From Epibacterium sp. Ofav1-8 (GTDB lineage Bacteria > Pseudomonadota > Alphaproteobacteria > Rhodobacterales > Rhodobacteraceae), in assembly GCF_022348185.1 (NCBI RefSeq), contig NZ_JAKRFD010000004.1:62001-126000 (forward strand): DNA of 64,000 nt, in the 5' to 3' direction. Position numbers and translations under genes: made by a program. Numbering within the stretch: position 1 is the stretch's first letter; each line of letters opens with the position of its first letter. A model generated the notes under the pieces. The model searched no databases. It was not told the origin of the DNA and worked only from the letters and a program-made list of their open reading frames with translations. Shown here in pieces: positions 29,515 through 32,079 of this stretch.

Positions 29515-29552
29515 AGAAAAAACCGCCGCACATCCGGGCAGATGGCGGCGGT
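29515..29552 (-). terminator. Intrinsic terminator of the 40-residue peptide gene
   Basis: ACCGCCGC (29522-29529) pairs with GCGGCGGT (29545-29552). On the minus strand the stem is followed directly by TTTTTTC. No longer gene reads into it on that strand except the small peptide gene at 29720-29842. Confidence 0.8.
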
Positions 29553-29719
29553 AAGTCAAAGCACTGTCACGCGGGACCCGGGAGACACCAAACACCGGAG
29601 GCAATGCTCTGGTGCGGATCGAACAGGCAATCGATCCTTACGGGACTTGAGGCTGGTGCCCCCGGCATGACAGCACAAAGGAAACTGTGAACGGGTTACA
29701 AAAGGCGTGAAGACGTCGT

Positions 29720-29842
29720 TTAGATCAGGCCCGGCAGATGCAGTCCGACGATCAGCATGACAACCAGAGACGCCGCGCCCAGAGCATCCTGCAACAGGGT
29801 GGACTGTGAATTGCGCAGTGCGGATTTGAATTGCGTGACCAT
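29720..29842 (-). CDS. 40-residue single-span membrane peptide, candidate SOS-regulated gene
   Basis: The peptide starts MVTQFKSALRNSQSTLLQDA and continues into one hydrophobic helix (about residues 20-38, LGAASLVVMLIVGLHLPG), ending LI. A perfect AGGAGG site lies 7 bases before the ATG, and an intrinsic terminator lies 168 bases after the stop. Upstream, on the same strand, are four tandem GTTC half-sites, one pair at the exact alphaproteobacterial LexA spacing (29923-29937). I know no named family for it. A short, SOS-controlled bitopic membrane peptide recalls Caulobacter SidA, a cell-division inhibitor, but sequence identity to SidA is not claimed. Confidence 0.7.
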   Translation of the reverse strand: MVTQFKSALRNSQSTLLQDALGAASLVVMLIVGLHLPGLI

Positions 29843-29922
29843 CTGAAAACCTCCTCGATCTCTGTCCTGCGTTCGCGACGCCTTGTTGTCCTTTTGTTCT
29901 CATTTCACGCGAGTCGTGTAAA

Positions 29923-29957
29923 GAACTTTTTGAGAACATTTGCGAACAAACTGGAAC
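29923..29957 (-). promoter_or_regulatory. Candidate LexA (SOS) operator: four phased GAAC/GTTC half-sites
   Basis: GAAC occurs at 29923, 29934, 29944 and 29954. The first pair is GAAC-N7-GAAC, a perfect match to the GTTC-N7-GTTC LexA box known in Rhodobacter and other alphaproteobacteria. The following gaps are 6 bases, so all four lie on roughly one face of the helix. The array sits 81-115 bp upstream of the 40-residue peptide start. Confidence 0.65.
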
Positions 29958-29988: not shown

Positions 29989-32079
29989 TTATCCCACTGA
30001 AATCAGGCGGATAGCCTCATCCTGACGCAACAGCCACAACAGCGTGCGCGCCGCGCGCCCCCGGTCACTGGTCAGATCCGGGTCAGAGGTCATCAGGGCA
30101 CGTGCGTCGCTCTGGGCGATCGCCATCAGATCCGCCTGCCGTTCCAGATCCGCGATCCGGAAACGCGGCAGGCCGGATTGGGCGGTGCCGATGACATCCC
30201 CCGCACCACGCATTTGCAGGTCGGTTTCGGCAATGACAAAACCATCCTCGCTTTCGCGCAGCACCTCAAGCCGCCTGCGCCCGCCCTCGGTGAGCGGAGG
30301 CTGATACATCAACAGACAGGTGGATTGGGCCGTTCCACGCCCGACACGTCCGCGCAGCTGGTGCAATTGCGCAAGGCCAAAGATCTCGGCGCGCTCGATC
30401 ACCATGATGGAGGCATTGGGCACATTCACCCCCACCTCGATCACCGTCGTTGCGACCAGAACCCGAGTGCGCCCTTCCTGGAAGGCGGTCATGGCGGCGT
30501 CTTTTTCTGCTGGGGGCATCTGACCATGCACCAACCCCACCACATCATCGCCCAGCACCGCCCGCAGGTGTTTGAACCGCTCATCGGCAGCGGTCAGATC
30601 CATAACCTCGGATTCTTCGACCAGTGGGCAGACCCAATAACACTGTCGCCCCTCGGCAATGGCGCGGCGCAGATGGTCCACCACCTCGGACATGCGTTCG
30701 GTGCTGAGGATCGCGGTTTTGATCGGTTTGCGACCCGGTGGTTTCTCGTCGAGGATCGAGACTTCCATATCGCCGTATTGGGTCAACGCCAGCGAGCGCG
30801 GGATCGGCGTCGCGGTCATCACCAGCACATCGGCACGCTTGCCCTTTTCGGCCAGCTCCATCCGTTGCCGCACGCCAAAGCGGTGCTGTTCGTCGACAAT
30901 GACCAGCCGCAAATCGTCAAAGACAACATCCTGCTGAAACACCGCATGGGTGCCGACAAGGATATGAATATCGCCACGTTGCAGCGCCTCGGTCTTGGCA
31001 CGCCGGTCCTTGCCCTTGTCACGCCCGGTCAGGATCTCAAGCACCACACCGGCGTCATCGGCCAGGGGTTTCAGCCCCTCAAGGTGTTGACGCGCAAGGA
31101 TTTCTGTCGGCGCCATCATCACGCCCTGGCCACCAGCCTCCACGGCCACCAGCAGCGCCATAAAGGCCACCAGCGTCTTGCCCGCCCCGACATCGCCTTG
31201 CAGCAACCGGTTCATCCGCCGCCCGGAGGCCATATCGGCGGTGATCTCTTCGATCGCGCGCCCCTGTGCGCCCGTGGGCTTATACGGCAGCGCAGAGAGC
31301 ACTTTGCTTTGCAGTTTTCCCGTGGCGACAGAGCTGCGCCCCGGCTGTTCACGCTCCACCGAGCGGGCAATGGCCAGCGTCAGTTGATGGGCGAACAACT
31401 CATCATAGGCAAGCCGGGCCCGCGCCGGGGATTCGGGCTCCAGATCGCTCAGGTGCCCCGGTGCGTGGGCTGTGGCGATGGCCTCGTGCCAATCCGCCCA
31501 GCCCTGCTTGGCCTTATAGGATGCATCCATCCATTCGGTGAGCTCGGGCACCCTTTGCAAGGCGCTCTGCACCGCCTTGAACATGGTTTTCTGCGTGATG
31601 CCGTGAGTCAGGTGATACACCGGTTCGAAATCCGGAATATCGCCCGCCTCCTCCAAGGGCAGCATGTGATCCGGGTGGACCATCTGCGCCATGCCGTCGA
31701 ACAGCTCCAGCTTGCCCGAAACCACACGGCGGGACCCTTCCGGCAATTGCGCGGTCAGATAGCGGCTGCGCCCGTGGAAAAAGACCAGTTGAAACTCCGT
31801 TTCCTGATCCGTCACATCAATCCGGTAGGCCCCGCCCTTGTTGCGCGCGGGGCGATGACGTCCGACCGTGATCTCAACCGTCGCCGTCGTAGGTAACTCA
31901 AGCCCCCGAATGGTCTCGCGCCGACGCCGATCCACAACGCTATAGGGGAGCGCGAACAACAGATCCCGCGGCGCCGTGATCTGCAACTGTGCAAAGTGTT
32001 CGGCGGTTTTTGGACCGACACCTTGCAAAGTCTCCAATTCCGCAAAAAGCGGGAACAGTTGTTCCGGACGTCCGCTCAT
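29989..32079 (-). CDS. recG: ATP-dependent DNA helicase RecG
   Basis: The 696-residue helicase remodels stalled forks and Holliday junctions. The N-terminal wedge/OB part is followed by helicase motifs: Walker A GDVGAGKTL, a DEQH box (VDEQHRFGVRQ), TATPIPRSLA, and motif VI QLRGRVGRG. Length is normal for RecG. It is 8 bp downstream of ligA on the same strand, probably in one transcript. The small-peptide gene and its SOS-type sites lie just beyond its stop. Confidence 0.96.
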   Translation of the reverse strand: MSGRPEQLFPLFAELETLQGVGPKTAEHFAQLQITAPRDLLFALPYSVVDRRRRETIRGLELPTTATVEITVGRHRPARNKGGAYRIDVTDQETEFQLVFFHGRSRYLTAQLPEGSRRVVSGKLELFDGMAQMVHPDHMLPLEEAGDIPDFEPVYHLTHGITQKTMFKAVQSALQRVPELTEWMDASYKAKQGWADWHEAIATAHAPGHLSDLEPESPARARLAYDELFAHQLTLAIARSVEREQPGRSSVATGKLQSKVLSALPYKPTGAQGRAIEEITADMASGRRMNRLLQGDVGAGKTLVAFMALLVAVEAGGQGVMMAPTEILARQHLEGLKPLADDAGVVLEILTGRDKGKDRRAKTEALQRGDIHILVGTHAVFQQDVVFDDLRLVIVDEQHRFGVRQRMELAEKGKRADVLVMTATPIPRSLALTQYGDMEVSILDEKPPGRKPIKTAILSTERMSEVVDHLRRAIAEGRQCYWVCPLVEESEVMDLTAADERFKHLRAVLGDDVVGLVHGQMPPAEKDAAMTAFQEGRTRVLVATTVIEVGVNVPNASIMVIERAEIFGLAQLHQLRGRVGRGTAQSTCLLMYQPPLTEGGRRRLEVLRESEDGFVIAETDLQMRGAGDVIGTAQSGLPRFRIADLERQADLMAIAQSDARALMTSDPDLTSDRGRAARTLLWLLRQDEAIRLISVG

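What the first reader, a model, noticed from the sequence alone, without database searches (positions are those of the whole stretch)
29720..29957. Phased LexA half-sites driving a 40-residue membrane peptide: candidate SidA-like SOS division inhibitor
Between recG and the hisI/NifU region, a 40-residue single-span peptide has AGGAGG 7 bases before its ATG and a minus-strand terminator downstream. Upstream are four GAAC half-sites (29923, 29934, 29944, 29954). The first pair is GAAC-N7-GAAC, the known alphaproteobacterial LexA box, and the others follow at 10-bp steps. Small SOS-controlled membrane peptides that block division are known in Caulobacter (SidA), so this may be an unrelated or distant equivalent in Rhodobacteraceae. 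The division role is inference.
Basis: partly seen in the sequence, partly recalled or inferred. Interest (0 to 1): 0.82.

Follow-up and report, generated by a model that had tools for sequence, protein, structure and literature searches.

The report
SOS-controlled membrane peptide with structured RNA
Next to recG, most Rhodobacteraceae examined carry an undescribed gene for a 40-residue membrane peptide whose promoter bears conserved sites for the DNA-damage repressor LexA and whose message ends in a conserved folded RNA; it is a good candidate for a damage-triggered brake on cell division in this family.

Summary
The 40-aa ORF (29842-29720, minus) is a real gene: 254 of 295 sampled family genomes have it, it is under purifying selection (median Ka/Ks 0.13), and it fits no Pfam or NCBIfam family. 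Its promoter carries an exact GTTC-N7-GTTC LexA box (29937-29923) touching the -35 and a one-mismatch box over the -10 (29899-29885). Of 156 family genomes whose promoter I read, 146 keep the exact first box and 139 keep both boxes at near-fixed spacing. The promoter is far better conserved than the protein (86% against 42% mean identity). Three genomes without detectable LexA or a recA box lack the gene; a fourth keeps the gene but has lost its operator. LexA control is very likely, though unproven. Division inhibition remains inference from the peptide's form and the SidA precedent. New here: the message continues into a conserved structured RNA (29685-29563) with strong covariation, no Rfam match, and a terminator. 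This may be a dual-function SOS transcript. The gene family was found only in Rhodobacteraceae, bar two marginal hits.

The parts
29720..29842 (-). 40-aa single-span membrane peptide ORF (ATG)
   Evidence: 254 of 295 family genomes at E<=0.01; median Ka/Ks 0.13 over 80 genus pairs with unsaturated Ks; AF2 one helix 2-39, mean pLDDT 80; D19 kept as D in 128 and G22 in 128 of 130 relatives of exactly 40 aa
29850..29855 (-). AGGAGG ribosome-binding site, 7 nt before ATG
   Evidence: sequence
29885..29899 (-). LexA operator O2 GAACAAAAGGACAAC (one mismatch), over -10 and start region; resembles the recA operator
   Evidence: exact GAACN7GAAC in some relatives (L281, L369, L371)
29894..29902 (-). 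TGA-GAACAA, proposed extended -10, 17 bp after the -35 (inference)
   Evidence: near-invariant TGAGAACA; no sigma-70 consensus hit
29917..29922 (-). TTTACA, proposed -35 (TTGACN or TTGCNN in some relatives)
29923..29937 (-). LexA operator O1 GTTCTCAAAAAGTTC (exact GTTCN7GTTC)
   Evidence: exact box in 146 of 156 family genomes, 80 of 80 loci
29944..29947 (-). third GTTC half-site, 10 bp upstream; often conserved
   Evidence: 109 of 139; 74 of 80; 10 of 17 in own genus
29954..29957 (-). fourth GTTC half-site; weakly conserved
   Evidence: 27 of 139; 53 of 80
29563..29685 (-). conserved structured RNA (model R1) in the 3' part of the message; arms of stem P1 at 29672-29661 and 29582-29565, inner hairpin 29637-29616 with loop UUGCCUGU
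   Evidence: no Rfam match here
29517..29552 (-). intrinsic terminator
   Evidence: z -4.7
29989..32079 (-). recG, conserved upstream neighbour
   Evidence: recG end found within 700 bp upstream in 73 of 80 loci by a strict pattern

Best explanation
This is a LexA-repressed SOS gene of the Rhodobacteraceae. In undamaged cells LexA dimers occupy two boxes that bracket the -35 (O1 just upstream, O2 over the -10 and start), so transcription is off. When RecA-ssDNA makes LexA cleave itself, a message of about 370 nt is made. It is translated into a 40-residue inner-membrane peptide, N-terminus inside, with an uncharged helix and the near-invariant residues D19 and G22. The peptide docks through this helix onto a late divisome membrane protein (FtsW, FtsI or FtsN are the likeliest) and delays septation until repair is done, the role SidA plays in Caulobacter. 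Shown: gene, operators, conservation, partial co-loss with the SOS system, structured RNA. Inferred: LexA binding, induction, start site, topology, target and division block.
For: Operator conserved at near-fixed geometry far beyond the protein; 67 of the 80 loci of the genomes picked for (lower-scoring or LexA-negative) still have the double operator, and 73 of 80 have an exact box in one orientation. The same genus's recA and lexA promoters carry boxes of the same form (of those I printed, 9 of 10 recA and 9 of 9 lexA); recA boxes are exact in 19 of 23 relatives. O2 (GAACAAAGGGGCAAC in relatives) resembles recA operators such as GAACAAGGGGCGAAC. In L369 and L371, where O1 is gone, O2 is an exact GAACN7GAAC. 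Co-loss: G046, G076, G184 have no detected LexA DNA-binding domain, no recA box with fewer than 2 mismatches and no detected gene; G174 likewise has no LexA and no recA box and has lost this operator. The membrane segment (20-40) is uncharged in 128 of 130 and keeps specific residues, which suits a specific partner. Precedents: SidA, 29 aa, LexA-controlled, binds FtsW (PMC4211646, passages); in Caulobacter a lexA deletion filaments because of sidA (PMC12700426, passages); a 2026 paper proposes FtsW as a common target of such proteins, from models it calls not of high confidence (PMC13396833, passages).
Against: No expression, binding or phenotype data. Eight genomes in which LexA was not found keep the operator (G045, G086, G164, G167, G175, G176, G177, G213). 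Several of these are incomplete or fragmented, and the six in which recA was found keep a recA box (exact in G164, G175, G177, G213; one mismatch in G045 and G167; recA not found in G086 and G176), but G167 is 3 contigs and 100% complete, so LexA absence there is unexplained. In G174 the structured RNA persists although the operator is lost. 31 of 253 near-complete LexA-positive genomes have no detected copy (from the tallies). The -10 is poor by sigma-70 consensus. The structured 3' RNA suggests that the transcript may act, wholly or partly, as RNA. I read promoters of 156 of the 254 gene-positive genomes of that sample, not all.
Confidence: 0.5

Rival explanations
1. Dual-function or RNA-led SOS transcript (not exclusive of the best explanation): LexA controls the message, but its main or equal product is the structured 3' RNA, whose loops show CUGUCCC, UGCCUGU and UGCCUC and which base-pairs in trans with mRNAs or titrates a protein; the peptide is a second output.
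For: RNA model R1 (seeded on 11 loci) finds the element in 63 of 100 and 13 of 60 gene loci at E<=0.01 (7 of the 76 are seeds), always on the ORF's strand and, in 75 of 76, starting from about 20 nt before to 84 nt after the stop codon; 0 of 22 other own-genome loci at that threshold and nowhere else in the 64-kb window at E<=1. 20 of 20 pairs show changes on both sides, 151 cells against 27 in shuffles; sliding the partners destroys the pairing. No Rfam match at this place.
Against: The A3 alignment (61 hits) was fitted to the structure, which inflates counts; RNAalifold on the MAFFT alignment A2 did find the same two stems with 5 covarying pairs. The element is shorter or undetected in many distant members while ORF and operator persist. 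No target known.
Confidence: 0.25
2. Membrane-depolarising SOS toxin like TisB or DinQ, which causes dormancy rather than a specific division block.
For: Small SOS-controlled single-span peptides of this kind exist in E. coli (DinQ: PMC3567139, abstract and outline).
Against: Membrane segment uncharged in 128 of 130 with conserved sequence-specific residues; estimated 5' UTR only 16-70 nt, median 34, in 221 loci with standard spacing (start site assumed), leaving little room for the long structured leader of type I systems (recalled). Pairing between own 5' UTR and 3' RNA is no better than between mismatched species.
Confidence: 0.15
3. SOS-induced small regulator of another membrane complex (transport, respiration, envelope stress, GTA or competence) with no direct role in division.
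For: Only form and regulation are known; the target is not. In Dinoroseobacter LexA sites were predicted for pilus, flagella, c-di-GMP and GTA genes (PMC6473078, passages).
Against: Several SOS-induced single-span proteins with known action hit late division proteins (PMC13396833, passages); DinQ, by contrast, does not (PMC3567139, section heading in the outline).
Confidence: 0.25
4. The GTTC repeats bind a regulator other than LexA.
For: Operators persist in some genomes without detectable LexA, G167 above all; promoter conservation extends beyond the half-sites.
Against: Same half-site form and spacing as the recA and lexA boxes of the same genus; the operator is lost along with the recA box in G174.
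Confidence: 0.06

Closest known systems
SidA of Caulobacter crescentus
   Same: Very small inner-membrane protein in an alphaproteobacterium, under LexA, whose box there is GTTCN7GTTC (PMC4211646, PMC12700426, passages)
   Different: SidA is 29 aa; sequence relation not tested; outside the family only two marginal A1 hits in the class sample; division effect of the present peptide unknown; I know of no structured RNA described behind sidA (recall, not searched)
DidA of Caulobacter
   Same: Small membrane inhibitor induced by DNA damage, targets FtsN (PMC4211646, passages)
   Different: DidA is induced by DriD and is SOS-independent
YneA, SosA, ChiZ (Gram-positive SOS division inhibitors)
   Same: SOS-induced single-span proteins acting on late division, perhaps through FtsW (PMC13396833, passages)
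   Different: YneA and ChiZ have LysM domains and SosA an extended helix; the present peptide ends at the membrane
TisB and DinQ (E. coli type I toxins)
   Same: SOS-controlled short membrane peptides
   Different: DinQ has antisense RNA control and depolarises membranes, with similarities to tisB-istR (PMC3567139, abstract); the present peptide has a short estimated 5' UTR and an uncharged span
SgrS/SgrT and RNAIII (dual-function RNAs; recalled)
   Same: One transcript with a small ORF and a conserved regulatory RNA
   Different: Here the ORF lies 5' of the RNA and the promoter is a LexA-type promoter; no target known

Membership tests
SOS (LexA) regulon of alphaproteobacteria | GTTCN7GTTC box at the promoter, conserved in relatives | tested here: met
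   146 of 156 exact; 80 of 80
SOS (LexA) regulon of alphaproteobacteria | Box of the same type as recA/lexA boxes in the same genus | tested here: met
   also uvrA and an MmcB-like gene in the own genome
SOS (LexA) regulon of alphaproteobacteria | Operator lost where the SOS system is lost | tested here: inconclusive
   G174 lost operator and recA box; G046, G076, G184 lack the gene; but G167 keeps the operator without detectable LexA
SOS (LexA) regulon of alphaproteobacteria | LexA binding and RecA-dependent induction by DNA damage | not testable with these tools
   needs wet-lab work
SidA family | Sequence homology to SidA | not tested
SidA family | Short single-span inner-membrane protein | tested here: met
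   (prediction only)
SidA family | Inhibits division through FtsW/FtsN | not testable with these tools
   no complex prediction or phenotype available
Type I toxin (TisB/DinQ) | Antisense RNA and long regulated leader | tested here: inconclusive
   estimated 5' UTR 16-70 nt; no antisense search beyond Rfam
YneA/ChiZ | Extracellular LysM domain | tested here: not met
   40 aa, no Pfam domain
Known Rfam RNA families | Covariance-model match to the 3' RNA | tested here: not met
   no match at E<=1 over the element in the window; in 13 relatives only six hits, all below gathering score and outside the element

The most novel reading that the evidence does not exclude
A family-wide dual-function SOS transcript: one LexA-controlled message that makes both a membrane peptide that halts septation and, from its 3' part, a stable multi-hairpin RNA with C-rich loops that reprograms translation in trans after DNA damage.
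Probability: 0.3. Interest if true: 0.88.

Novelty: new variant of a known kind. Interest (0 to 1): 0.74.

Why it matters
Rhodobacteraceae (Roseobacters, Rhodobacter and kin) are among the commonest bacteria in the sea (recalled), and the literature searches listed no SOS division inhibitor for them. A gene found in 254 of 295 sampled genomes, with a strikingly conserved LexA-type promoter and no family in Pfam or NCBIfam, could fill that gap. It would give an independent case of small membrane peptides as damage checkpoints. The attached structured RNA is itself not in Rfam 15 and makes an SOS-linked dual-function RNA testable.

Tried and rejected
Box counting alone: rejected as evidence (103 against 99; 43 against 44). 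Autoregulation by pairing of the 3' RNA with its own ribosome-binding site: cognate pairs are not better than mismatched pairs (126 loci; mean -25.5 against -26.3 kcal/mol; permutation p 0.997). Mobile origin: no match in phages or plasmids at E<=1. Known family: none for the peptide itself in Pfam or NCBIfam; of 39 aligned relatives, Pfam gave none, PHROGs two families with one member each (best E 0.0026) and NCBIfam three, the best being NF007711 (YgaH) in 3 of 39 at E 0.0021, all taken as stray. PADLOC was not searched. Weak hits L018-L021 and L389 are chance matches and were left out. RNAalifold on A2 gave the two stems plus four doubtful pairs, which I dropped before building R1; I also added four pairs by hand at the base of P1. 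Literature: ten searches (open-licence PMC only, judged from listings) showed no paper on this gene or RNA; the 2004 alphaproteobacterial LexA regulon paper is not held, so it may already list the site.

Full report
What is there. On the minus strand, downstream of recG, lies a 40-codon ORF (29842-29720) with AGGAGG 7 nt before its ATG. The four GAAC half-sites are at the stated positions. The terminator is real (29552-29517; -24.2 kcal/mol, z -4.7), though the simple scan did not list it.

Is it a gene? In the genus 17 of 18 genomes have a clear copy; the 18th is 67% complete with only a chance-level match. In the family 252 of 295 match at E<=1 with the single sequence and 254 of 295 at E<=0.01 with a profile, 225 of 260 among near-complete genomes. 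In a class-wide sample of 385 genomes seven match: five family members, and two others at E 0.007, no more than chance gives. Median Ka/Ks is 0.13 (largest 0.36) over 80 genus pairs with unsaturated Ks. No Pfam or NCBIfam model fits the peptide; scans of 39 relatives gave only stray weak hits. No phage or plasmid record matches.

The promoter. An exact GTTCN7GTTC by itself is worthless as evidence: the own genome has 103 against 99 for the control pattern. Conservation is what counts. In 45 of 45 loci the box is present, with GAGAACA or GGGAACA starting 36 bp from the box start (37 in one). In the best 80 of 215 relatives from named records (Tritonibacter, Phaeobacter, Ruegeria, Leisingera, Rhodovulum and others), which overlap in part with the unnamed sets, 80 of 80 have it with identical spacing. 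I then read the promoters of 156 distinct genomes of the 254 gene-positive ones (98 not read), including all 80 genomes, which I had picked as lower-scoring or LexA-negative: 146 have the exact box within 130 bp of the start, 148 an exact box in either orientation, 154 a box with at most one mismatch, against 3 and 172 of 2787 control windows for exact and one-mismatch boxes. Box one followed by a second box of the form G.AC-N7-.AAC is present in 139 of 156 (spacing 23 nt in 125; 20, 22 or 24 in 14). In the 125 with GAAC at standard spacing, the 38 promoter positions compared are 86% identical on average, the 15-nt spacer inside the promoter 39%, the 40-aa proteins 42%.

Why LexA. In the same genus recA has GAACAAGGGGAGAAC or close variants and lexA has GAACATGAATAGAAC (I printed 10 of 24 recA and 9 of 21 lexA loci; 9 and 9 show an exact box). 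Over 23 relatives recA shows an exact box in 19. In the own genome uvrA and an MmcB-like gene also carry boxes. The second element here, GAACAAAAGGACAAC, is a recA-type box with one changed base. In L369 and L371, where the first box is gone, an exact GAACN7GAAC stands in the second place; in L281 the first box is shifted upstream and the second is exact. TTTACA, replaced by TTGAC or TTGC in several relatives, sits directly after the first box and fits a -35; 17 bp on, TGA-GAACAA is the likely extended -10, although it is not a good sigma-70 match (inference; one search finds no consensus promoter). Both boxes would thus cover the core promoter. The third half-site is kept in 109 of 139 (10 of 17 in the own genus), the fourth in 27 of 139.

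Co-loss. 17 of 295 family genomes showed no LexA DNA-binding domain. A full-length search found LexA at or near contig ends in two of them (G139, G250) and only a distant protease-like match in G076. I sought recA in 13 of the 17 and found it in 11 (G025, G050, G139, G250 were not included and have no detected peptide gene). G046, G076 and G184 have no recA box with fewer than 2 mismatches and no detected peptide gene. G174 also has no such recA box, and its peptide gene has lost the operator and is extended at the C-terminus, although its structured RNA persists. Against this, G164, G175, G177 and G213 keep an exact recA box and the peptide operator, and G045 and G167 keep a one-mismatch recA box and the operator, so LexA may be missing from those assemblies; but G167 is nearly closed, and that case is unexplained. 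G086 and G176 keep the operator with recA itself not found. G212 has a recA box but no detected gene. Among near-complete genomes, 4 of 7 LexA-negative against 31 of 253 LexA-positive lack the gene (Fisher p 0.007; for the three with no recA box, chosen afterwards, p 0.002).

The peptide. One helix from 2 to 39 is predicted (mean pLDDT 80). Among 130 relatives of exactly 40 aa (of 171 read), residues 1-15 carry +1.2 net charge on average and residues 20-40 none in 128; D19 and G22 are each kept in 128, L34 in 127 and P37 in 119. This fits an N-in single span with a specific partner better than a pore-forming toxin, but it is a prediction.

The message has a second conserved part. Between the stop codon and the terminator lies a structured RNA. 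A long outer stem (P1) closes hairpins whose loops carry CUGUCCC, UGCCUGU or UGCCUC. RNAalifold on the MAFFT alignment of 11 loci found the two main stems with 5 covarying pairs. A covariance model with these stems hits the element in 63 of 100 and 13 of 60 gene loci at E<=0.01 (7 of the 76 are seeds), in the window at 29685-29563 (E 7e-5), and in none of 22 other own-genome loci at that threshold. All 76 hits lie on the ORF's strand; 75 start from about 20 nt before to 84 nt after the stop codon, the other is the extended ORF of G174. On 61 of these hits all 20 pairs show changes on both sides, 151 cells against 27 in shuffles, with pairing falling from 93% to 45% or less when slid; this alignment was fitted to the structure, so the figures flatter it. 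Rfam has no match at this place. Many distant members keep ORF and operator with a shorter or undetected RNA. Pairing of this RNA with its own ribosome-binding site was tested and not supported.

How it most likely works. LexA represses; damage releases it; the peptide is made and inserted; by analogy with SidA it inhibits FtsW/FtsI/FtsN and holds division. In Caulobacter a lexA deletion filaments because of sidA (PMC12700426, passages), and small membrane inhibitors of late division are described as widespread (PMC13396833, passages). I put LexA control at about 0.93, the membrane location at about 0.95 and the division role at about 0.5. These three figures are judgement.

Novelty. The kind (SOS-controlled membrane peptide) is known. 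The family, its rigid double operator and its attached RNA are not in the protein and RNA libraries searched. Ten literature searches listed no paper on it, but the open-licence library misses key papers such as the 2004 regulon study.

Noticed in passing
It lies on the same likely transcript.
   Followed up: partly
L126 (G000:C33) and L127 (G000:C34): Two near-identical copies in the own genome of a 93-aa ORF (one copy, L126, scanned: no Pfam or NCBIfam family), each behind an AT-rich exact LexA-like box (GTTCTGTTTTTGTTC, GTTCCGTTTTTGTTC).
   Followed up: no
G046, G076, G184, G174 (family genomes): Lineages that appear to have lost LexA together with the recA operator, a natural test set for SOS regulon membership.
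   Followed up: partly
G167: 3-contig, 100% complete genome with no LexA found in two searches, yet the peptide operator is intact and the recA box has one mismatch.
   Followed up: partly
window 29944-29947 (-) and relatives: Third GTTC half-site at N6 spacing, conserved in 109 of 139, of unknown use.
   Followed up: no
L021 (G006:C4): A longer small protein with a faintly similar span (GDVLGAISLAIIFGGLLYAPLLW), E 1.7; perhaps a separate family.
   Followed up: no
L217 (JAHVJD010000001.1): Record titled Nocardioides marinus carries the Rhodobacteraceae-type recG-peptide locus; its contig length equals that of family genome G255, so the organism name looks wrong.
   Followed up: no
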